Shown here: piece by piece, positions 15,776 through 24,795 of the stretch
How positions within the stretch are numbered: position 1 is the first letter of the stretch
Layout: each line of letters opens with the position of its first letter
Origin: a virus
Length of the DNA: 41,314 bases
Reading direction: 5' to 3' (one strand)
Virus record (IMG/VR): IMGVR_UViG_3300048586_000207
Span: 1-41,314 of that record
Translations under genes and position numbers: made by a program
Notes under the pieces: generated by a model
What the model saw: the letters and a program-made list of their open reading frames with translations, nothing else
Databases searched by the model: none
Told to the model about the DNA's origin: nothing

Positions 15776-16171
15776 CTAGGCCGCCCGGCTAGGCGCTGCG
15801 CAATTGATGACCGCCGTGATGAGCCCGCCGACCGCCGTGTTATCTTCGAGCACCTGCCCGATGACGTAATTCGTCGTATCGGTGCCCGGCGTCTTCTTGG
15901 CCGCCTGCCCGTCGGCGCTCGTGCCGATCAGGTCGGTCGTCGCCAGGTTGGCATCGGCCACGATCTTGCTGATGCCGATGATGCAGACCTCCGCGGCCTG
16001 CCCCGAGGTTGGCGTGTTCTGCAGCACGCCGATCGGCACGTCGGTGACCGCCGCGCAGACGACGACCGTTTTGTTGGCCGCCAGCTTGACCAGGTGATAC
16101 TGCTTGCCGCTCAGGTCGGCGCCCGCCGTGTGCCCCACGAGCTTGACGACGCCATCAACTTCCCAGGCCAT
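15776..16171 (-). CDS. head decoration/stabilisation protein (DUF2190-like)
   Basis: The 131-residue beta-rich protein has the pattern of DUF2190-type capsid proteins: a GVVKLVGHTAGADLSGKQYHLVKL start, ADVPIGVLQN-like turn (here TDVPIGVLQN), GQAAEVCIIGISKIVAD, and a C-terminal GQVLEDNT segment. Such proteins trimerise on the capsid surface and stabilise it. The start shares its A with the upstream TAA (TAATG). It lies between the protease/scaffold and the major capsid gene as usual. Confidence 0.78.
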   Translation of the reverse strand: MAWEVDGVVKLVGHTAGADLSGKQYHLVKLAANKTVVVCAAVTDVPIGVLQNTPTSGQAAEVCIIGISKIVADANLATTDLIGTSADGQAAKKTPGTDTTNYVIGQVLEDNTAVGGLITAVINCAAPSRAA

Positions 16172-17895
16172 TAGTTGCGCTCCTTCGCGACGGCCGTCGC
16201 CAGCTCACGATCGGTGGTGAGAATGTGCGTGATGGCCTGCTGCTGGGTGACCTTGTTGGCCTCGGCGTACACCTTTGCCTGCTCTTCCACCCGCTGCCAC
16301 GCGCTCTTGCCCGCATCACCGTCCCCGCCGGCGCTGGTGCCCGCCGCCGAGAAGAGCCCCGACTGCGCGACCGATTTGGCGTGCTCGGTGTTCGTCTTGA
16401 TGTAGCGCTTGACCTGCTCGGAGTCCTCCCCGAAGGTGGCGGCGAGGTCGTTGAGCATGGCCACGTGCTCGCCGGCATCGCCGAACCAGCGCGGGCCCCC
16501 GTCAGTGCCCTTGACCAGCGCGGTAAAGCGCTGGCTGCGCTGCGCCGTCTCGAGCGAGGCGATGCGCCCCTCCTGGGCCGCGATGGTCGTCTTGGCTTCG
16601 GCCAGCTCGGTAACCGTCGCCTCGTACTTCGGCTTGAGCTCGCGATACTCGCGAATCTCCGCCTCGGTGAGCGTGACCGCCTGCCCTGCCGCTGGCGGCT
16701 GCTGGTTCTTGGCGTCAGACACGCCAGTACCCTCCTGCCGGTGCGCGTCGCGCCCGGCCTGATCATCCAACGTCCCGGTTTCGCTGGCCGCCAGCGGCCG
16801 GAGAACGTCCGTCTTGAAGTGCGGGCGGACACAGATCGCCATGCCGACCGCCACGTTGTCGTGAAAGTCGGCGGTGACGGGGTCCTGCCACTGGTCGTAG
16901 ATCTCGGCGGAGACGTAGCGGAAGCGGTCGCCGGCGATCAGCTCGCGGCCCCGGTCGTTCCACTCCGGCCGGACCTCGATCGATCCGTCCTCAGCGAGAC
17001 GCATCTCCCGAATCCAGCCGACCGCCCCGGCCGAGCGATAGTCGTGTTCGACGTTGATGGGCAGATCCTGCCCGTAGGTGTTGGCGGAGAAGTTGGCGAC
17101 GATCGCCGCGTACTTCTCGGCCGTGAAGTCGAGGGTCCCGAAGACCGCATGGGTGTAGGTGCCCGGCGGGGGGAGGAACTGCACCCACTCGCTGGCCGCC
17201 GTGAAGGTGCGTGGGCGAACGAACCGAATGCCGGCGTGATCGCTGATTGACTCGGCGTAAACCATGCCGTCTGTCATGCCGCGCAGCGGGATAACCACCC
17301 GCCGCTCGCCGGCCACGATCACGATGTCCGTGAAGCGCAAGGGCAGCTCGGCCAGGTCCGGCGTCAGGTCGGTGCCGGCCGGCACATAGGCGAGCGTGAT
17401 GTGCGGCGAGTAGCCATGCTCCCTGCTGATCGCCGCACCGGTGAACCCGATGCTGTCCACGATGGCGCCGCGCAGTTCCGTCAGCCCCGGCACATCGGGC
17501 ACGGCGTAGATGACATCACCGTCGTCACCGCCATAGAACCGCCCATGCCCGCCGATCGTGCCGGTGAGCGGTGCGTGGTAGGCCGCGATGTCATCCACCG
17601 CGCCAACGATGCGGGCAAAGGTCAGATCATCGGCCGTCGCCATGTCCGGCACGATCGCCAGCGTGATGTGCAGGTTCTCGGCTGGTTCGCCACCCGGCTG
17701 CGCGAGGGCGGCCGCGGTGGCGTCATCCAGCCACAACGCCACCAGCAGCCCGGTGTAAGCGCCTTCGGTCAGTTGCAGCGATGTGGGGAGCTGCTCGTTG
17801 GGGATGCGGACGCCCCGGCCCATCGCCTGCCGGAGCTGGGCGACGATCGCCGCGCGGTCGCTATCGCTGAGAATGAAGTCGTCGCTCGGTGTCAT
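16171..17895 (-). CDS. 2H-phosphoesterase fused to Mu I-like prohead protease and scaffold
   Basis: This 574-residue protein has three parts. Residues 45-205 form a 2H (2'-5' RNA ligase-like) domain with both signature motifs, H76-I-T78 (NLHITLAIVPD) and H165-I-T167 (PHITLAYVP). Residues 225-365 match the Mu I-type head protease: FLPPPGTYTHAVFG, ALIV-type core, INVEHDY with H284, GWIREM and FRYVSAEIYD. Residues 405-574 are coiled coil and Ala/Glu/Lys-rich, as in scaffolds. The ATG at 17895 was chosen because it lies after the leader terminator and behind a GGAG; the open frame beyond is leader. 2H enzymes cleave cyclic phosphates or 2'-5' bonds. Their fusion to a head protein is odd. Confidence 0.85.
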   Translation of the reverse strand: MTPSDDFILSDSDRAAIVAQLRQAMGRGVRIPNEQLPTSLQLTEGAYTGLLVALWLDDATAAALAQPGGEPAENLHITLAIVPDMATADDLTFARIVGAVDDIAAYHAPLTGTIGGHGRFYGGDDGDVIYAVPDVPGLTELRGAIVDSIGFTGAAISREHGYSPHITLAYVPAGTDLTPDLAELPLRFTDIVIVAGERRVVIPLRGMTDGMVYAESISDHAGIRFVRPRTFTAASEWVQFLPPPGTYTHAVFGTLDFTAEKYAAIVANFSANTYGQDLPINVEHDYRSAGAVGWIREMRLAEDGSIEVRPEWNDRGRELIAGDRFRYVSAEIYDQWQDPVTADFHDNVAVGMAICVRPHFKTDVLRPLAASETGTLDDQAGRDAHRQEGTGVSDAKNQQPPAAGQAVTLTEAEIREYRELKPKYEATVTELAEAKTTIAAQEGRIASLETAQRSQRFTALVKGTDGGPRWFGDAGEHVAMLNDLAATFGEDSEQVKRYIKTNTEHAKSVAQSGLFSAAGTSAGGDGDAGKSAWQRVEEQAKVYAEANKVTQQQAITHILTTDRELATAVAKERN

Positions 17896-17911
17896 CTCGG
17901 CTCCGGCCAAC

Positions 17912-17952
17912 AAAAACGGCCAGTGGCGCCCGGGCGGGGGCGTCACTGGCCG
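17912..17952 (-). terminator. intrinsic terminator in the protease/scaffold leader
   Basis: The arms 17917-17930 and 17939-17952 pair over 14 positions with one mismatch, around an eight-base loop, and on the minus strand TTTTTG follows. The strong hairpin plus U-tract lies only 17 bases before the ATG of the protease/scaffold gene and downstream of a putative promoter, so it acts as a leader attenuator or the 3' end of a short RNA. Confidence 0.75.
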
Positions 17953-17986
17953 ACAATTGGCCGTCGCTCGTGACGTCAGTGTAGCA
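17953..17986 (-). promoter_or_regulatory. extended -10 promoter and conserved 15-mer
   Basis: On the minus strand TGC-TACACT (17986-17978) forms an extended -10 element. Thirteen bases past TACACTGA lies the start of GGCCAATTGTCGGCC, which runs into the terminator stem. The same set (TGnTACACTGA, the 15-mer, a hairpin and GGCCGTTTTTG) recurs at 22520-22598. A TTGCGC at 18003-18008 could be a weak -35 with a long spacer. The expected transcript to the terminator is about 60 bases. Confidence 0.5.
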
Positions 17987-18013: not shown

Positions 18014-18724
18014 CTAGTTCGGCGTCACCTGGAAGAAGAACCGGGCGGCTTCCTGCGTCAGATCGGTTGGCTCCACGACACCAACGAGCGTGCTTGGCAT
18101 GGCGGTGTGCGCGCCGGTCGATGCGACGCTGATGCCAGCCGATGACACGGACGATCCGTCCGTGAACGCAGCACGGCCAACCGTCCCGCCGTAACTCCGG
18201 AATCCCGTGATGCTGACCGTCGCGGTGGCGGACCCTCCAACCCAGTACAGGCCCGGCGTCACCGGCGCATCCGGCGACAGACTGAACCCGTCTCCCGGTT
18301 GCGCCCCGTCCGTCACCACGACCGTGCCCAGATCAGCCACTTTCGCGCCCGCCAGTCCCCGGCTCGCTCCGGTTTCCGAGACGGCGAAGAGGGCGAACCG
18401 GGCCGTCGCGTCCCCGTCCTGGGGGGCGTACAGCACAAATCCGATGCCGGTGAGGTTCGCGTCGGGATCACCGATCCTGATGAGCGCGAGCGTGATGGTG
18501 TCCGGTTCCAACGTCGCCGGATCGTCGCCTTCGCTCCCCGCCATCGCGGTGCCGTTGTCGTACCAGACGTTCGGGTTCATGGAGTACGTGTCGCCGCCCC
18601 CGCCGCCGGCATCCACCGGGATCGCCATTCCTATGCCGCCCGCCGTCACCGAGTCGAGCGGGATTACCCATCCATCTTCGCCGCGCAGCACGTACCCGCC
18701 GCTGCCGTCCGGGTAAATTCTCAT
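18014..18724 (-). CDS. head-region fibre or decoration protein with shared N-terminal peptide
   Basis: The 236-residue protein begins MRIYPDGSGGYVLRGEDGW, then VIPLDSVT, which aligns with the first 27 residues of the phosphoesterase protein at 20800-22518. After a Gly-rich linker the rest is a beta-rich domain (NPNVWYDNGTAM, LYAPQDGDATARFALFAVSE, PVTPGLYWVGGS) of jelly-roll type, as in phage surface proteins that bind sugars. GGAGG lies ahead of the ATG. Its place between the Mu F-like and protease genes suggests a head-attached protein. The shared N-terminus may be a docking peptide. Both are inference. Confidence 0.65.
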   Translation of the reverse strand: MRIYPDGSGGYVLRGEDGWVIPLDSVTAGGIGMAIPVDAGGGGGDTYSMNPNVWYDNGTAMAGSEGDDPATLEPDTITLALIRIGDPDANLTGIGFVLYAPQDGDATARFALFAVSETGASRGLAGAKVADLGTVVVTDGAQPGDGFSLSPDAPVTPGLYWVGGSATATVSITGFRSYGGTVGRAAFTDGSSVSSAGISVASTGAHTAMPSTLVGVVEPTDLTQEAARFFFQVTPN

Positions 18725-18733
18725 TGCTTCCTC

Positions 18734-19432
18734 CTACCCGCTCGCCATCGGGTACTCCACCCGCTGGTAGAGCCGGCCCCGCTCCGCGCACCCATCGCAC
18801 ACGTTGCCATCCGATTCCGTGATCCAGGTGGCCACCCACATGTGCTGATCGTTGTCGCCGACGATCGACCACGAACAGCGGCAACGACTCTTGCACTCCG
18901 TACCACCGTCCGCCGGATACACCGGCAGCCGACCCCCGGTGCGCCCGATCCCCTTGGCTGAGGCGTTTCCCCGTTCATAGCCCTCCACCGCCGCACCGCC
19001 GTAGAGCGCCGCCCGCTGTGCGGTGCGCGGTTCCAACGCCTCCTTGATCGCCTGCAACGGCGTCACGCCCCGCTGGGCATCGATCGCGGCCTGGAGCACG
19101 TTGAGGAAGCGTTGCCCGTAGGCCGTCTGCCGAGTCACTACCACGGCGAGCTCATCCCAGTCGGCATCGGTCATCAGCGCCGTCCCGCCGCGGCCCAGCA
19201 CGTAGCCATGGGAGGCCGCTTCGACGATCAGGGTCAGGAAGCGATCTTCCCACGTCACCTTCGCAATCTCGCCGCCGACGTAGGACGCCACCAGCGCCAC
19301 GAGGCGCGTTTCGTAGGCATCGGCCATCGCGTTGCGCAGCGCGATCAGCTGCGCTTCGGTGACGAGCCGGCCGGTCCGCTTGTGGCGGTAGCGCTGCGTG
19401 CGGTCATCCCACACGAGGTCGTTCGGGGTCAT
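18734..19432 (-). CDS. Mu F-like head morphogenesis protein
   Basis: The 232-residue protein has the C-terminal hallmark of the Mu F/SPP1 gp7 minor head family: ERGNASAKGIGR, VYPADGGTECKSRCRCSWSI with the conserved Cys cluster, and VWP-like aromatic pairs near W and CDGC further on. The N-terminal half is helical. Its ATG overlaps the portal stop (ATGA). Such proteins enter the prohead in few copies and help assembly or DNA delivery. Together with the gp29-like portal and I-like protease it shows a Mu-type head module on a siphophage tail. Confidence 0.85.
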   Translation of the reverse strand: MTPNDLVWDDRTQRYRHKRTGRLVTEAQLIALRNAMADAYETRLVALVASYVGGEIAKVTWEDRFLTLIVEAASHGYVLGRGGTALMTDADWDELAVVVTRQTAYGQRFLNVLQAAIDAQRGVTPLQAIKEALEPRTAQRAALYGGAAVEGYERGNASAKGIGRTGGRLPVYPADGGTECKSRCRCSWSIVGDNDQHMWVATWITESDGNVCDGCAERGRLYQRVEYPMASG

Positions 19433-20778
19433 CCCTCGCCGCCATCAGCCGGCTCACCGCCGCTGCTCTTCGTCGCCGCCCACGCCTCCCGCTGGGCCTT
19501 GATCTCCTCGGCCGTCGGCAGATCGTTGATCGGCAGCCCGGCCACCTCGTGCAGGAACTCCCGCAGCTCCGGCGAATCGATCAGGGTGCCGGTGTTGGCC
19601 AGGCGTACCAGGTAGAGCCCGAGATTCTGGAGGTCCTTGCTGTCGATGCGGCCCGGCTTGAGCTTCGGCGCCAGCTCGCTCTCCATGCCGTTGAGCCGCA
19701 GCAACCGGGGAATCGCCTGCGTGTTGATCGCATCGGCCACGATGTCGAGGTGCGCGCCGATCGCGGACTGGAAGAGCCCGCTCTGCGTTTCCGAGAGCGC
19801 CAGCGCCCCGATCCCGTCCTGCCCGGTCCGCATCACGTTCGCCAGGAAGACGGTCACGATCTCGTTGGCGTAGCGCCGGACGACCGGGTCTGTGTCGAAC
19901 GCCTTGCCGCCGCCCGACTTGATCAGCTCGAACTCATACTGCTTGTTGCCGTCGGAGTCGCTGTCGCTCGGCAGGATAATGCCGGCCTGCTCGCCGTTGC
20001 GCAGGCTCGTCACCATCTGCTGGTAGGCGGCGTAGAGCGGATCGCCATCCTGCATCGCCGATGCCGGCATCCGGATCATCGGGATGCCGGCCAGATCCCG
20101 CTCGATACCGATCCCCTCGATCTTCTGGATCGCCCGCTTGTAGTACCACGCGTCGTACGCCGGCCGCAGCGGCGTCCACCCTTCCGGCGAGTTGGTCTTG
20201 CCGGAGTAGACGATGTGCAAGAGCCGCTCGATCGGAATCTCGTACTTCTGGAAGCTGGCCGGATCCTGCTGGATCAGCGCGGTCACGTCGCCGGCGTCAT
20301 CGAATGTCCAGCCAAACCGCGTCGCCTGTGGCCGGGTCGCCCAGCGCCGCCAGCCGATGCGGCCGTCATCGAACTGGCTCCGCTGCGTGGGATCGGCCTG
20401 CTCGGGTCCGCTCCGCCGCTTGTAGATGATCTCGCCGGCGTACCAGCCCCACGGGATGTAGGAGAGGATCGCCGAGAGGGTGTCGCCTGGCCAGTAGCCG
20501 TCCATGTCGGCCAAGCATTCCTCGATGAAGGTGGCCAGCTCGGTCGCCGGCGCCGATTCATCGGCCGGCTCGATGGACCAGTCTACCCGCCGCACCAGCA
20601 TCTCGATGCCGTGCAGGATCGCCCCGATTTCCGGCGAGTGGATCATCGCCCGGATGGTGCGGTCCCGTTCGGTGCCGCGCCAGGCCCTGTCAGGATCGTC
20701 GGACCACAGGACACCGCCATAGTGGACGAGGCCCGGGGAGCCGTGGGTGACGAAGGGCGCGCGTGCGCGGTCGGTCAT
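19429..20778 (-). CDS. portal protein (Mu gp29 / DUF935-like)
   Basis: The 449-residue protein has typical portal segments: EIGAILHGIEMLVRRVDW, IPWGWYAGEIIYKRR, FDDAGDVTALIQQDP, PIERLLHIVYSGKTNSPEG, LRPAYDAWYYKRAIQ and GIERDLAGIPMIRMP, and a C-terminal helix region before a Gly/Glu tail. These match the Mu gp29-like portal family. It forms the ring through which DNA enters and leaves the head. GGAGAGG lies ahead of the ATG. TerL is upstream, but a zinc-ribbon and the phosphoesterase gene stand between the two, which is unusual. Confidence 0.9.
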   Translation of the reverse strand: MTDRARAPFVTHGSPGLVHYGGVLWSDDPDRAWRGTERDRTIRAMIHSPEIGAILHGIEMLVRRVDWSIEPADESAPATELATFIEECLADMDGYWPGDTLSAILSYIPWGWYAGEIIYKRRSGPEQADPTQRSQFDDGRIGWRRWATRPQATRFGWTFDDAGDVTALIQQDPASFQKYEIPIERLLHIVYSGKTNSPEGWTPLRPAYDAWYYKRAIQKIEGIGIERDLAGIPMIRMPASAMQDGDPLYAAYQQMVTSLRNGEQAGIILPSDSDSDGNKQYEFELIKSGGGKAFDTDPVVRRYANEIVTVFLANVMRTGQDGIGALALSETQSGLFQSAIGAHLDIVADAINTQAIPRLLRLNGMESELAPKLKPGRIDSKDLQNLGLYLVRLANTGTLIDSPELREFLHEVAGLPINDLPTAEEIKAQREAWAATKSSGGEPADGGEG

Positions 20779-20799: not shown

Positions 20800-22518
20800 C
20801 TAGCCGAGCACCGTGTTCATCGTCCAGTCATCCGATGATGTATTGACAAAGCGCATGTGCTCCTGACTAGTCAGGGGCCGCCGGAACGCGGCCACGCCCA
20901 GCAGCGCTCCCCCGATGCCACTGGTGCTCGATGACCCGCCGAAGTACATGGCCGTGCTGATTGCCACCAGGTCGTAGTAGCCGACCGATCCGGCGTCCTT
21001 GCCATTGACCCGCAATTGCGCCACCTTGCCGTCCCAATCGAGCGCCAGCGTCACGATCTGCCCCACCGGTACCGGGTACGACGTGCTGATCACACTCAGA
21101 TTGCTGCCGACGCTGGCCGAGGCATTTTCGGATGCGTTGACGGTCAGGAAGATGCGGCTCAGCCCGCCGAGTGCGGGTTGGTATGCGACATTCTTGGTGG
21201 CGGCGGTATCCGCGATCGTGCACCGGACAATGACGCTGCCCTTGCCCGGCAGGAGGTAGCTGCTCGGGTTGATCAAGGTCCGGTTGTTCTGGTCCGTCAG
21301 GTCCAGCCCGCTCTCTCCGTTGACCGTGGTATAGAGAGCCGAGCCAACCATTGTCAGGGACGCCGCGCCGTTGATTGTCTCCCCGGCCAACGAATCGACC
21401 AGCGGAAACACGAACGCGGTCGGGTTGCCTTCCGGCGGCGCCGGGGTGCTGCGGGGCACCGGGATCGCCGCGTAGCCGTTTAGGGTCTCCCACGCCTGCG
21501 TGCGGTGATTCCGGATGTGCACGTCAATCCGGTCGTCAAGCACCGTCAGGAAGAGCGAGCGCAGGGGATCGGTCTCGCCGGTCAGCGCCTCATCCGTCCA
21601 GGCCAGTGACCCGGCGTTGATGTGGGCGATGTGCCGGGAGCCGAGCCAGTGTCGGTCAAAGCAGCCGACCGCCTCGTACTGCGAGTGGGTGTGGCCGCAG
21701 ATCCACGCCCGCGCGTTGCTGTGCTTGTCGAGGACCGCCTGCACATCCGTACTGGGCTGGGTCATGAAATTGGGATTGATGCTCGAAAGCCCACCGGTGG
21801 CCGCGCCGCCCGGCCGCATGGTGTAAACCGTGCGTTCGAGCGGCGAGTGGCAGAGGATGATCGCGTCACGCCCATCGGCGGCCAGCTGCTGATCGAGCCA
21901 GGTCACGGTCGCCGTCGAGAGGGTGACCGGATTGGCCCCACCACCCGCCACCGTATCCAGCCCGATCACGATCAGGCGGCACCAGCCGAAATCGGTGACG
22001 AAGTTCTGGTCCGCGTAGCCGTAGACCGCCGCCCACTGGTCGGCGGTGCGTTCGCCGTTGGTGTCGTGATTGCCGACGCAGGCGGTCCAGTCGGCCCGGT
22101 CCGGATCGAGCGCGGCGGCGCGGGCCAGGAACTCGGTGTCGTTCGCGCCGGGTGTCGTGCCAGACGAATCGACCCGATCAACCAGGTCACCGACGTAGAG
22201 ACGGTGGAAATGCAGGTGGTTGAGCGTCGCGAGATCGGTGAACGCCGCGTCGAGCCGCGCGTCAATGCCGGTGCGGGTGGTGTACCCGACGTGCACGTCT
22301 CCGATCACACTGAAGGTCCGATCGGGAAAAGCGGGCGCGGTGCCAACGATCGTTTCAACGACCGCCCTCGCCGCGCTTCCCGGCGTCTCAAGGTCCGCCT
22401 GCGTCACGCCGACATCGGCCGTGCCGAGCGCCCCGTCCGTCACCGACTCCAACGGGATGACGAAGCCTCGCTCGCTGCGCAGGAACAGGTCACCGTTCGG
22501 CGCGCGGTAGATCTTCAT
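20800..22518 (-). CDS. metallophosphoesterase with C-terminal LamG-like domain
   Basis: The 572-residue protein has all motifs of a calcineurin-like phosphoesterase: GDVH (73-76), GDLVD (110-114), GNHD (149-152), CHSP with H224, and GHTH (275-278). Residues 365-560 form a concanavalin/LamG-like sugar-binding fold (LPGKGSVIVRCTI, ALDWDGKVAQLRVNG, FRRPLTSQEHMRFVN). The first 27 residues match the N-terminus of the protein at 18014-18724. The ATG at 22518 was chosen since it begins that shared peptide; its AGGAGG is inside a terminator stem. Its place before the portal gene suggests a virion surface enzyme acting on a phosphate-containing polymer or nucleotide. The substrate is unknown. Confidence 0.85.
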   Translation of the reverse strand: MKIYRAPNGDLFLRSERGFVIPLESVTDGALGTADVGVTQADLETPGSAARAVVETIVGTAPAFPDRTFSVIGDVHVGYTTRTGIDARLDAAFTDLATLNHLHFHRLYVGDLVDRVDSSGTTPGANDTEFLARAAALDPDRADWTACVGNHDTNGERTADQWAAVYGYADQNFVTDFGWCRLIVIGLDTVAGGGANPVTLSTATVTWLDQQLAADGRDAIILCHSPLERTVYTMRPGGAATGGLSSINPNFMTQPSTDVQAVLDKHSNARAWICGHTHSQYEAVGCFDRHWLGSRHIAHINAGSLAWTDEALTGETDPLRSLFLTVLDDRIDVHIRNHRTQAWETLNGYAAIPVPRSTPAPPEGNPTAFVFPLVDSLAGETINGAASLTMVGSALYTTVNGESGLDLTDQNNRTLINPSSYLLPGKGSVIVRCTIADTAATKNVAYQPALGGLSRIFLTVNASENASASVGSNLSVISTSYPVPVGQIVTLALDWDGKVAQLRVNGKDAGSVGYYDLVAISTAMYFGGSSSTSGIGGALLGVAAFRRPLTSQEHMRFVNTSSDDWTMNTVLG

Positions 22519-22519
22519 C

Positions 22520-22562
22520 AAAAACGGCCTCCTGCTTCGCCCGTGGGCGCCGCATGAGGCCG
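22520..22562 (-). terminator. terminator that contains the ribosome binding site of the phosphoesterase gene
   Basis: On the minus strand CGGCCTC (22562-22556) pairs with GAGGCCG (22531-22525), with an inner CGCCC/GGGCG stem in the loop, and TTTTTG follows directly before the ATG at 22518. The Shine-Dalgarno AGGAGG (22533-22528) is part of the closing arm. The element could stop transcription and also hide the ribosome site in read-through mRNA. Confidence 0.7.
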
Positions 22563-22598
22563 ACAATTGGCCATGATTGCTTTGGGTTCAGTGTATCA
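22561..22598 (-). promoter_or_regulatory. extended -10 promoter and conserved 15-mer
   Basis: On the minus strand TGA-TACACT (22598-22590) forms an extended -10 whose TGA is also the stop codon of the zinc-ribbon gene. Fifteen bases past TACACTGA, GGCCAATTGTCGGCC begins and merges with the terminator stem. The layout copies that at 17912-17986. The expected short transcript is about 65 bases. Confidence 0.5.
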
Positions 22599-22790
22599 GG
22601 TCCGATCCCGCCTGATCTGCTCCAGACGCTCCGGTGGCAGGGACGGCGCCGGCTCATCGAGCCGCACGATCACCCACGCCTGGCAGGCCTTGCAGTAGAT
22701 GCGTAACCGGCCGAGCGGGTGATCGATCTCTCCGAGGAAACGCCGGCACGACGGGCAGAGGATCGGCCGCAGCTCTGTCGCCGCGCTCAT
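22596..22790 (-). CDS. Com-like zinc-ribbon protein
   Basis: This 64-residue protein has CPSCRRFLGEI near its N-terminus and LRIYCKACQAWVIV later, the layout of Mu Com and related small zinc fingers (C-x2-C ... C-x2-C with an aromatic after the second pair). The ATG at 22790 overlaps the TerL stop (TGATG), so this start was chosen over the upstream GTG. In Mu, Com opens a hairpin that hides the mom ribosome site. Here the next gene has its Shine-Dalgarno inside a hairpin, which makes a similar role worth testing. Confidence 0.75.
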   Translation of the reverse strand: MSAATELRPILCPSCRRFLGEIDHPLGRLRIYCKACQAWVIVRLDEPAPSLPPERLEQIRRDRT

Positions 22791-24331
22791 CAACGCCACA
22801 CCGACGGCGAGGTCAGGACGGCGGGGGCGACCTTCACCGGCGTCCCGTGCCGCAGGTCGTGCCAGCTCCAGAAGGCCGCATCGACCAGGTCGAACGGCTT
22901 GATCAAGAGGTAGCGCCTGAGCGCCCGCTGAAGCGTCTCGTGCGTGCCGATCACATGGACGAGGCGCCCCTTCTCGTAGTCGGCCAGCATCTGCGAGGCC
23001 CGGTGCGCTTTCGGGCCGTGTCCCGCGCCGGCCTTGTCCTGCCGGAATTGCGGCGCCCGCTCCTTGCGGCCCAGCTCGCCCGAGGCACGCAGCTGCTCAA
23101 CCACGCCGGCATAGGTGCTCTTCCAGGTATCGCCGCCCTGATCGGTCTCCACGCCGACGCATTCCGCCTTGAGTTCGAGCGCCTTGCGCAGCGCCCGGGT
23201 CAGCGCGTCATCCGGCGAGGTGCGCGCCTCCCACGAGAAGAGCCGGTAGATCGTGCCGTCCGCTGCCAGCCCGTCGGCCTGGATGCCGTGCGCGTCCGAG
23301 CGATCGGTATCCGTGACGGCCGGATCCACCCAGACAACGATCCGCTCCAGCGCCGGCACCGCGCTCCATTCGCAGTGCCGGAACGTGAGGTGCCCGAAGA
23401 TGCCGCCGTCGACGTTGCCGACCTCGTGCTGCTTTTCGCGCAGGAAGGCGGTCAGCCCGATCTCGTTCAGCTCGGCTTGGAGCTCCGGGATCCCCATCGC
23501 CGGCCAGGTCGGCTCGCCATGGGTGATGATCGCCTTGCCGCTCCGCTGCTCGGTCACCAGATTGCGAATCGCCGGATGCGGCCCCGAGACGATGCGATCG
23601 GCGAGGAAGTCGGCGCGGCCGTCGGCGAGCCGCGACACGATGCCGTGCTCGTGGATGAGGTTCTGCGCCACCAGCACGGCGGCGTGCGCGGCCCGCGACG
23701 GCAGCAGCGATTGCGTGATGGTGGCGATCTTCTTCTCGACGGTGCCCGGCGAATCGAGCAGGCCGTCGATGTCATCGAAGATGAGGATGTCCGGGCGGTC
23801 CTCATCGATCTTGGCCCCGCGCGCCGCGGTATCGAGGCCGATCGCATCGAGGGTAAACCCGCTCGCCGTGCGGAGCCGATTCCGGCGCCAGCCGGCGGCG
23901 TTGCCGTACTTGCCCAGCTTGCGTTGCGAGGCGGCCGGGTAGTGCTGCGTGAAGGTGCGCGATTCGAGGAGCCCGCCGACGTTCTTGACGTGATCGTCCG
24001 CCCGTTCCTGGGTGGCGCAGATGTAGAGCCCGTACCGGCGCGTCTGCCGCGCAGCGACCATGGCGCAGGCCACCTCGGTGCTGGTCGATTTGGCGAAGCC
24101 ACGCGGCCAGATCGCCACGAACGGCGCGGCCGGCGCACCCGACTCGATCGCCCACGCCCACTGCCAGAACTGCTCGTGGTAGGCCGCATACGGGGGCCAG
24201 AGGTAGCCGGCGAAGTTCTCGGCAATCCACTCCTGCCAGGTTCCGGGTTCGGTGCGCTGACGAAATGATCGGATCTTTTCGAGCATATAGCCGGTCGCTT
24301 TGACCGCTTCGGACTGCGAGACGACTTCCAT
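22790..24331 (-). CDS. terL: terminase large subunit
   Basis: The 513-residue protein has an ATPase with Walker A WPRGFAKST (75-83), Walker B DILIFDDID (181-189) and, after a linker, a nuclease with VVWVDPAVTDTDRSD (acidic D336) and a later GVETDQGGDTW. It cuts and pumps DNA into the prohead through the portal. The ATG overlaps the TerS stop as TGATG. The length is normal for the family. The presence of both active sites supports headful or site-specific packaging, which cannot be told apart from sequence alone. Confidence 0.93.
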   Translation of the reverse strand: MEVVSQSEAVKATGYMLEKIRSFRQRTEPGTWQEWIAENFAGYLWPPYAAYHEQFWQWAWAIESGAPAAPFVAIWPRGFAKSTSTEVACAMVAARQTRRYGLYICATQERADDHVKNVGGLLESRTFTQHYPAASQRKLGKYGNAAGWRRNRLRTASGFTLDAIGLDTAARGAKIDEDRPDILIFDDIDGLLDSPGTVEKKIATITQSLLPSRAAHAAVLVAQNLIHEHGIVSRLADGRADFLADRIVSGPHPAIRNLVTEQRSGKAIITHGEPTWPAMGIPELQAELNEIGLTAFLREKQHEVGNVDGGIFGHLTFRHCEWSAVPALERIVVWVDPAVTDTDRSDAHGIQADGLAADGTIYRLFSWEARTSPDDALTRALRKALELKAECVGVETDQGGDTWKSTYAGVVEQLRASGELGRKERAPQFRQDKAGAGHGPKAHRASQMLADYEKGRLVHVIGTHETLQRALRRYLLIKPFDLVDAAFWSWHDLRHGTPVKVAPAVLTSPSVWR

Positions 24332-24795
24332 CACACCCCCGCTCGTTGCGCCGCCAGGAAGGTGGCAACGCTCGCCTGAAGCTCTACACGCTCGTCCGGG
24401 GTCAGGCCGAAGCGATCGGCAGTCTCCGCGATCACCTGCTCGATATTGATCTTCTGTGGGGCGTCAAGGCCGAGCAGCCGGGCGCGGCGCTCCAGCACCT
24501 TGATCGCCACTTCGACGGCGCGGGGGTTGCCATCGAGCACCTTGGGCCAAAGCCCGTCGAGCATCGCATCCATGCGGGCAACTTCGAGCGCCCGGAGATC
24601 ATCAGCCGGCTCCTGGAGGGTCTTGCGCAGCGCCGCCTTCACCGCGTTGTGCGCACTGGACGGACCGCCATAGCCCAACTCCTGAGCGATGGCCTCATAG
24701 GACTTGCCGGCCTTGCGCAACTCGAGCGCGGCGCGCTGGCGTTCGACGGCCGTGAGGCGTTTTTCACTCGTCATGGATTCAGTGCGACCCGCCAT
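24331..24795 (-). CDS. terS: terminase small subunit
   Basis: The 154-residue protein has an N-terminal helix-turn-helix of the usual TerS kind (TAVERQRAALELRKAGKSYEAIAQELGYG, with the turn at GKSYEAIA), then long helices and a C-terminal segment (INIEQVIAETADRFGLTPDERV) typical of phage terminase small subunits. It binds the packaging site and hands DNA to TerL. The ATG at 24795 follows GAGGGG; the longer upstream frame is shadow. A 7-bp dyad lies just ahead of the ribosome site. Confidence 0.82.
   Translation of the reverse strand: MAGRTESMTSEKRLTAVERQRAALELRKAGKSYEAIAQELGYGGPSSAHNAVKAALRKTLQEPADDLRALEVARMDAMLDGLWPKVLDGNPRAVEVAIKVLERRARLLGLDAPQKINIEQVIAETADRFGLTPDERVELQASVATFLAAQRAGV

What the first reader, a model, noticed from the sequence alone, without database searches (positions are those of the whole stretch)
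16171..17895. 2H-phosphoesterase domain built into the head protease/scaffold gene
The sequence shows two HIT motifs at residues 76-78 and 165-167, at the usual 2H spacing, directly ahead of a Mu I-like protease and a scaffold-like tail. Known 2H enzymes include phage Acb1, which cleaves cyclic nucleotides in CBASS immunity. If the protease frees the N-terminal domain inside the prohead, the enzyme could be packaged and injected, giving early protection. The injection idea is inference.
Basis: partly seen in the sequence, partly recalled or inferred. Interest (0 to 1): 0.72.

Follow-up and report, generated by a model that had tools for sequence, protein, structure and literature searches.

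The report
Head-protease gene carrying a 2H enzyme
This phage makes its head-maturation protease and scaffold as one protein with an intact RNA/nucleotide-cutting (2H) enzyme attached to its front. The same enzyme family is bolted onto many different head proteins in other phages, which suggests, but does not prove, that it is carried inside the virus particle.

Summary
The minus-strand ORF 16171-17895 (574 aa) has HxT motifs at residues 76-78 and 165-167, inside a significant 2H domain (PF13563, E 5e-11). Its model (mean pLDDT 85) matches 2H enzymes: drCPDase Z 17.8, E. coli LigT 15.6, Acb1 10.5. Next come a flexible linker, a Mu-I-type assemblin-like protease (invariant His284 and Ser329; VZV protease Z 9.2) and a helical scaffold tail. 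An internal GTG with a perfect AGGAGG site suggests the scaffold is also made alone, a nested I/Z-like arrangement.

The arrangement recurs. In 69 distinct relatives found with 2H queries, both catalytic motifs are invariant, and about 54 are fused to head proteins: four protease families, portal (some with MuF) or capsid. Partners swap along the 2H tree, and two of nine protease relatives lack the 2H.

I favour a virion-cargo enzyme delivered with the DNA. Packaging and injection of 2H-portal and 2H-MuF fusions were already predicted (Iyer 2017, 2022), so this is a new variant of a known kind. Acb1 membership is not supported: it is a more distant match, and the substrate is open. Release by the protease and presence in virions are unshown.

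The parts
16171..17895 (-). whole gene: N-terminal 2H phosphoesterase + Mu-I-type head protease + scaffold (574 aa; ATG at 17895 preceded by GGAG)
17278..17760 (-). 2H phosphoesterase domain (residues 46-206)
   Evidence: PF13563 E 4.8e-11; model mean pLDDT 85, 137 of 215 residues at 90 or more; Z 17.8 to drCPDase, 15.6 to LigT
17662..17670 (-). first catalytic motif H76-I-T78
   Evidence: invariant in the 61-row 2H alignment
17395..17403 (-). second catalytic motif H165-I-T167
   Evidence: invariant in the 61-row 2H alignment
17200..17277 (-). linker between 2H and protease (residues 207-232), candidate release site
   Evidence: pLDDT under 50 over residues 207-230 in the full-length model; cleavage itself is inference
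16780..17199 (-). assemblin-like (Mu gpI-type) head-maturation protease (residues 233-372); His284 at 17044-17046, Ser329 at 16909-16911
   Evidence: PF10123; His284 and Ser329 invariant in 9 relatives; Z 9.2 to VZV protease over residues 233-369
16731..16736 (-). internal Shine-Dalgarno AGGAGG for the nested scaffold
   Evidence: only start codon in the gene with a 6/6 match; same spacing in L002, similar sites in most relatives
16171..16722 (-). nested scaffold reading frame (GTG, residues 392-574), helical
   Evidence: helices at 411-462, 474-511 and 532-573; internal start with SD at the matching place in most of 9 relatives
17911..17952 (-). hairpin plus T-run directly upstream of the gene, terminator-like
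   Evidence: -50.5 kcal/mol over 17895-17975, z -6.3; hairpin with a different sequence in the same place in L002, L042, L121, L046, L048, L054
14784..15734 (-). major head protein (context)
   Evidence: phrog_1005 E 4.5e-96
15776..16171 (-). small head gene next to the scaffold (context)
   Evidence: phrog_673 E 1.5e-14
19429..20778 (-). Mu-type portal protein (context)
   Evidence: PF06074 E 1.4e-32
22790..24334 (-). terminase large subunit (context)
   Evidence: phrog_38 E 3.8e-37

Best explanation
The gene is a head protease/scaffold gene with a catalytically intact 2H phosphoesterase added at the front as cargo. Shown by sequence: 2H domain, linker, assemblin-like Ser/His protease, and a scaffold that also has its own start codon. 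Inferred: most scaffold is made from the internal start; a minority of full-length protein is drawn into the prohead by its scaffold tail; the protease cuts the flexible linkers; the compact 2H domain, of roughly 23 kDa, is too large to leave and stays in the head; it enters the next host with the DNA. There it acts before any phage gene is expressed, most likely by hydrolysing a ribonucleotide phosphodiester (2',3'-cyclic, 2'-5' or cyclic oligonucleotide) and so blunting RNA-cleaving or nucleotide-signalling defences. My confidence by step: active 2H enzyme fused to the head protease, about 0.95; virion cargo, about 0.6; counter-defence role, about 0.4; CBASS cyclic oligonucleotides specifically, about 0.2.
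For: 2H domain and fold. Catalytic H and T residues of both motifs invariant in 61 aligned domains and in the 69 full-length set. Assemblin-like protease with invariant His/Ser. Nested scaffold start. With 2H-domain queries, 275 viral loci encode relatives; of 69 distinct relatives the partners are XkdF protease 14, Phage_portal 14, Mu-like_Pro 9, S78 protease 8, MuF 4, capsid 3, Portal_Mu 3, DUF2213 1. Partner swaps on the 2H tree: at least 13 changes against a minimum of 5, with two starred sister pairs of different partners (DUF2213 with Mu-I; capsid with portal). Such partners are parts of the head, which suits packaging better than a cytosolic task. The 2H is an accessory: protease relatives L126 and L129 lack it while L121, L125, L127 and others have it. 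Flexible linker at 207-230. Published prediction that 2H-MuF and 2H-portal fusions are packaged and injected, and that assemblin-like peptidases process such proteins (PMC5512222, PMC9503650).
Against: No proteomics, cleavage or activity data. The literature searches found no virion evidence for this family. Stand-alone members exist, for example a 183-aa protein in Mycobacterium phage LRRHood, in a region that has ThyX and unannotated genes, so fusion is not obligatory. Head proteases commonly digest themselves and their scaffold, and fragments may leave the prohead. Full-length model confidence is only moderate (mean pLDDT 67, pTM 0.34). Detection patterns included parts of the HxT motifs, so invariance of the motif used for a given hit is partly built in.
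Confidence: 0.5

Rival explanations
1. Late cytosolic RNA enzyme: the 2H domain works in the infected cell before or during head assembly, for example opening 2',3'-cyclic phosphate ends left by host RNases, and fusion to the protease only ensures late, stoichiometric expression.
For: Nearest solved relatives are RNA 2',3'-cyclic phosphodiesterases. Stand-alone family members exist. 2H domains of other phages have been linked with RNA repair (PMC7824862).
Against: A stand-alone gene would do this better. Fusion partners are mostly head components. No RNA ligase was sought or seen beside this gene, and Iyer 2017 never saw this 2H type with RNA ligases.
Confidence: 0.22
2. Structural or regulatory module: the 2H fold binds nucleotide or nucleic acid and gates protease activation or scaffold assembly, with catalysis unimportant.
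For: It is attached directly to the protease, and low dN/dS also fits a structural role.
Against: Catalytic His/Thr are invariant over distant relatives. The same domain is attached to portals and capsids as well as proteases. Protease relatives lack it.
Confidence: 0.13
3. A true Acb1 relative that protects against CBASS by cleaving cyclic oligonucleotides.
For: Same fold and HxT/HxT active site; Acb1 structures match at Z 10.5; two of 69 relatives reach the Acb1 profile at E under 0.001.
Against: The window protein does not hit PF23474 at E 1; Acb1 ranks far below LigT/CPDase in sequence and structure; the relatives shown individually score under the curated cut-off.
Confidence: 0.1
4. No special role after assembly: the 2H is fully degraded or expelled with the protease and scaffold, and persists as a mosaic passenger.
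For: Head proteases of other phages remove themselves and the scaffold (established knowledge).
Against: Strict conservation of catalytic residues and repeated fusion to head proteins that stay in the virion, portal and capsid.
Confidence: 0.1

Closest known systems
2H domains fused to MuF or portal proteins (polyvalent/virion effectors; Iyer et al. 2017 PMC5512222, 2022 PMC9503650)
   Same: Same superfamily and same general idea: an enzyme attached to a head protein, predicted to be packaged and injected against nucleotide-based immunity; this survey finds 2H-portal and 2H-MuF members of the same sequence family.
   Different: Here the partner is the Mu-I-type protease/scaffold, and the sentences about 2H in those papers name only MuF and portal. 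The 2017 paper mentions assemblin-like peptidases at the C termini of polyvalent proteins; the 2022 paper mentions Nudix fused to the capsid peptidase.
Arthrobacter Laroyevirus gp18 (annotated capsid maturation protease or RNA ligase) and Gordonia phage Phinally gp18
   Same: Laroyevirus gp18 is a 2H fused to a head protease, sitting between the portal/MuF genes and the capsid gene; the Phinally gene is annotated as head maturation protease or RNA ligase and holds a weak 2H match.
   Different: The Laroyevirus protease is XkdF/S78_2, not Mu-I type; in Phinally only the 2H was detected by Pfam, below its cut-off.
E. coli LigT/ThpR and D. radiodurans CPDase
   Same: Closest solved fold and sequence; same HxT/HxT tetrad.
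   Different: Stand-alone cellular enzymes; LigT Arg130, which holds the water and product phosphate (PMC5283653), is Tyr170 here (97% Tyr in the family).
Phage Acb1 (anti-CBASS 2H nuclease)
   Same: Fold and catalytic tetrad.
   Different: Free-standing in the studied phages; more distant in sequence and structure; no Pfam Acb1 match for this protein.
Phage Mu gpI/gpZ and lambda C/Nu3 nested protease-scaffold genes (own knowledge)
   Same: Scaffold is the C-terminal part of the protease gene with its own internal start.
   Different: Those proteases are not described, to my knowledge, as carrying a 2H domain.

Membership tests
2H phosphoesterase superfamily (PF13563 / LigT-like) | two H-x-T/S motifs at about 90-residue spacing | tested here: met
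   residues 76-78 and 165-167, invariant in relatives
2H phosphoesterase superfamily (PF13563 / LigT-like) | 2H fold (two-lobed beta/alpha) | tested here: met
   model pLDDT 85; Z 14 to 18 to many 2H structures
2H phosphoesterase superfamily (PF13563 / LigT-like) | metal-independent phosphoesterase activity | not testable with these tools
   needs biochemistry
LigT/ThpR RNA cyclic phosphodiesterases proper | Arg five residues after the second catalytic His (LigT Arg130) | tested here: not met
   Tyr170 in the window, Tyr in 97% of 61 relatives; role of Arg130 from PMC5283653
Acb1 (PF23474) | match to the Acb1 profile at its curated cut-off | tested here: not met
   no PF23474 match at E 1 for the window protein
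Acb1 (PF23474) | fold resemblance nearer to Acb1 than to other 2H groups | tested here: inconclusive
   Acb1 Z 10.5 against 15 to 18 for LigT/CPDase; a lower Z does not exclude it
Acb1 (PF23474) | aromatic base-stacking residues and C-terminal lid | not tested
   no superposition coordinates were available
Mu gpI-type (assemblin-like) head protease | profile match and conserved Ser/His | tested here: met
   PF10123 E 5.8e-8; His284 and Ser329 invariant; VZV protease Z 9.2
Mu I/Z-type nested scaffold | internal start with ribosome-binding site at the scaffold boundary | tested here: met
   GTG 392 with AGGAGG; a start with a strong SD at the matching place in most relatives; use in the cell not shown
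Virion-packaged, injected phage effectors | fusion to a head component encoded among head genes | tested here: met
Virion-packaged, injected phage effectors | presence in the virion and delivery to the host | not testable with these tools
   needs proteomics and ejection assays

The most novel reading that the evidence does not exclude
A single 2H family is a general head-delivered, pre-expression counter-defence enzyme of tailed phages, released from head proteases, portals or capsids by the head protease, with a substrate that is neither LigT's nor Acb1's (family-specific Tyr in place of LigT Arg130).
Probability: 0.25. Interest if true: 0.8.

Novelty: new variant of a known kind. Interest (0 to 1): 0.52.

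Why it matters
If the 2H domain is virion cargo, phages can blunt nucleotide or RNA based immunity before making any protein of their own, and the head protease is the release mechanism. The family is common in cultured actinobacterial phages (346 phage records match one query), so the idea can be tested at once by virion proteomics and simple mutants.

Tried and rejected
(1) Chance HIT motifs: rejected, the Pfam, PHROG and structure matches are significant. (2) Acb1 identity: no profile match, lower structural rank. (3) LigT orthology: Arg130 position is Tyr. (4) PADLOC gave no match at E 1. (5) phmmer of the full protein against PDB sequences gave nothing; a profile was needed. (6) A bacterial-genome scan with the protease alignment found no relative; a 2H-based scan found only four, in Calidithermus, a Chloroflexi MAG, Herpetosiphon and Streptomyces, so the host of this phage stays unknown. 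(7) The highly diverse 2H alignments could not be used for scans. (8) The overlapping ORF 16155-16832 (-) has no family match and no support as a gene. (9) Published virion proteomics for any 2H-fusion phage: none found.

Full report
WHAT IS THERE. The minus-strand ORF 16171-17895 encodes 574 aa. An in-frame ATG 102 nt upstream exists, but the ATG at 17895 has GGAG in front of it and corresponds to the start of the close relative L002. HIT occurs at residues 76-78 and 165-167, exactly as reported. Pfam finds PF13563 2_5_RNA_ligase2 (E 4.8e-11, residues 71-183), LigT_PEase (3.8e-5) and PF10123 Mu-like_Pro (5.8e-8, residues 257-460). PHROGs finds phrog_14859 'RNA ligase' (3.2e-24) and phrog_328 'head maturation protease' (1.7e-12). 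The gene lies in a head cluster, in transcription order: terminase 24334-22790, Mu-type portal 20778-19429, a small gene 19432-18734, ORF 18724-18014, this gene, a small head gene 16171-15776 and the major head protein 15734-14784.

STRUCTURE. A 61-sequence model of residues 1-215 has mean pLDDT 85. Its best structural matches are D. radiodurans CPDase (Z 17.8), T. thermophilus TT0787 (16.4) and E. coli LigT (15.6); AKAP18, Usb1 and rotavirus VP3 PDE lie at about 12-14, and Acb1 at 10.5 (Foldseek also ranks the LigT/CPDase group first). A profile search of PDB sequences also prefers LigT-like entries (best E about 1e-10 or lower) over Acb1 (E 0.13). In the full-length model (mean pLDDT 67, pTM 0.34) residues 207-230 and 370-410 are disordered, and residues 233-369 match herpesvirus assemblin (VZV protease Z 9.2). 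His284 and Ser329 are invariant in nine Mu-I-type relatives, so the protease looks active. Residues 411-573 are helical.

NESTED SCAFFOLD. Among in-frame start codons of the gene, only GTG 392 has a full AGGAGG. L002 has the same site, and most of the other seven relatives have an ATG with a 5-6 nt SD match at the same boundary; L040 has only a weak one (4 nt) there. This resembles Mu I/Z and predicts excess free scaffold plus a minority of full-length 2H-protease-scaffold. That internal initiation happens is inferred from sequence only.

CONSERVATION. Against L002 dN/dS is 0.20 in the 2H, 0.14 in the protease and 0.35 in the scaffold (NG86). Across 61 aligned 2H domains H76, T78, G116, F120, P164, H165 and T167 are invariant; Y170 is 97%. 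LigT has Arg130 at the Y170 position, which coordinates the nucleophilic water and the product phosphate (PMC5283653). So the family is not LigT proper, and its substrate should not be copied from LigT. Caveat: the scan patterns touched the HxT motifs, so part of the invariance is built in.

HOW WIDESPREAD. Using 2H-domain queries only, 275 viral loci were confirmed, 80 of them kept, after 30 in an earlier scan. Pfam on 69 distinct proteins: 2H in all; XkdF/S78_2 14, Phage_portal 14, Mu-like_Pro 9, S78 8, MuF 4, capsid 3, Portal_Mu 3, Phage_capsid_4 1, DUF2213 1. Counting by local clustering plus these Pfam results, about 54 of 69 carry a recognised head component and 32 a head protease. Individual examples include portal-2H (L009), 2H-DUF2213 (L012), S78-2H (L010, L020), 2H with HK97 capsid (L034, L077) and portal-2H-MuF in Herpetosiphon (L132). 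On the 2H tree partner type changes at least 13 times against a minimum of 5, and two starred sister pairs carry different partners (quick method; deep branches uncertain). In a search seeded on the protease alone, seven distinct relatives carry the 2H, while L126 and L129 do not. The 2H is therefore an accessory of a protease that works without it.

CULTURED RELATIVES. Arthrobacter Laroyevirus gp18 is 2H plus XkdF protease, variously annotated 'capsid maturation protease', 'RNA ligase' or 'aldolase'. Many Gordonia, Streptomyces and Mycobacterium phages hold relatives (346 records with one query). In Bxz1-like Mycobacterium phages the 2H is a stand-alone 183-aa gene.

HOW IT MAY WORK. Shown: active-looking 2H enzyme, flexible linker, active-looking head protease, scaffold tail. 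Inferred: co-assembly into the prohead, cleavage, retention of a folded domain, ejection with DNA, and action on a ribonucleotide phosphodiester relevant to defence. The strongest argument for cargo is that one enzyme family is attached, repeatedly, to head proteins of unlike families. The strongest argument against is the total lack of virion data and the existence of stand-alone members.

PRIOR ART. Iyer 2017 (PMC5512222) and 2022 (PMC9503650) proposed that 2H domains fused to MuF or portal are packaged, injected, and counter nucleotide-signalling immunity or act as RNases. They also noted assemblin-like peptidases at the C termini of polyvalent proteins and Nudix domains fused to the capsid peptidase. 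New here are the Mu-I protease/nested-scaffold architecture, the finding that protease fusions are at least as common as portal fusions in this sample, the demonstration of partner swapping, and the Tyr-for-Arg family signature. I did not find these stated elsewhere, but supplementary data of those papers were not readable.

VERDICT. Real feature; new variant of a known kind; moderate interest, because it is directly testable in cultured phages.

Noticed in passing
window 17911-17952 (-): A very stable hairpin followed by a T-run sits directly before the start of the 2H-protease gene (-50.5 kcal/mol, z -6.3). A terminator-like hairpin of different sequence sits in the same place in L002, L042, L121, L046, L048 and L054 but not in L040, L125 or L127: possibly a conserved transcription boundary or dose control for the protease.
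   Followed up: partly
window 18014-18724 (-) and 20800-22566 (-): Two different proteins of the head region share an N-terminal segment of about 25 residues (MxIY...LRxExGxVIPLxSVT). One of them has a calcineurin-like metallophosphoesterase plus a laminin-G-like domain; the other is an ORF absent at the matching place in L002. The segment may be a shared attachment tag.
   Followed up: partly
L026:979-3576 (+): Relative in which the 2H follows a histidine-phosphatase domain and a weak ChaB-like segment: a multi-enzyme protein; the ORF runs off the contig end.
   Followed up: no
L048 and L129, N-terminal about 60 aa: Similar ChaB-like N-terminal segments precede the protease in both, but only L048 has the 2H between them: a likely insertion or loss of the 2H.
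   Followed up: partly
L126:1176-5969 (+): Mu-I-type protease with a very long N-terminal extension of about 1,250 residues and no 2H, and no other Pfam match.
   Followed up: no
phages collection, Arthrobacter Laroyevirus gp18 and Gordonia phages: The same gene family is deposited under conflicting names (RNA ligase, aldolase class I, capsid maturation protease, head maturation protease), an annotation problem.
   Followed up: no
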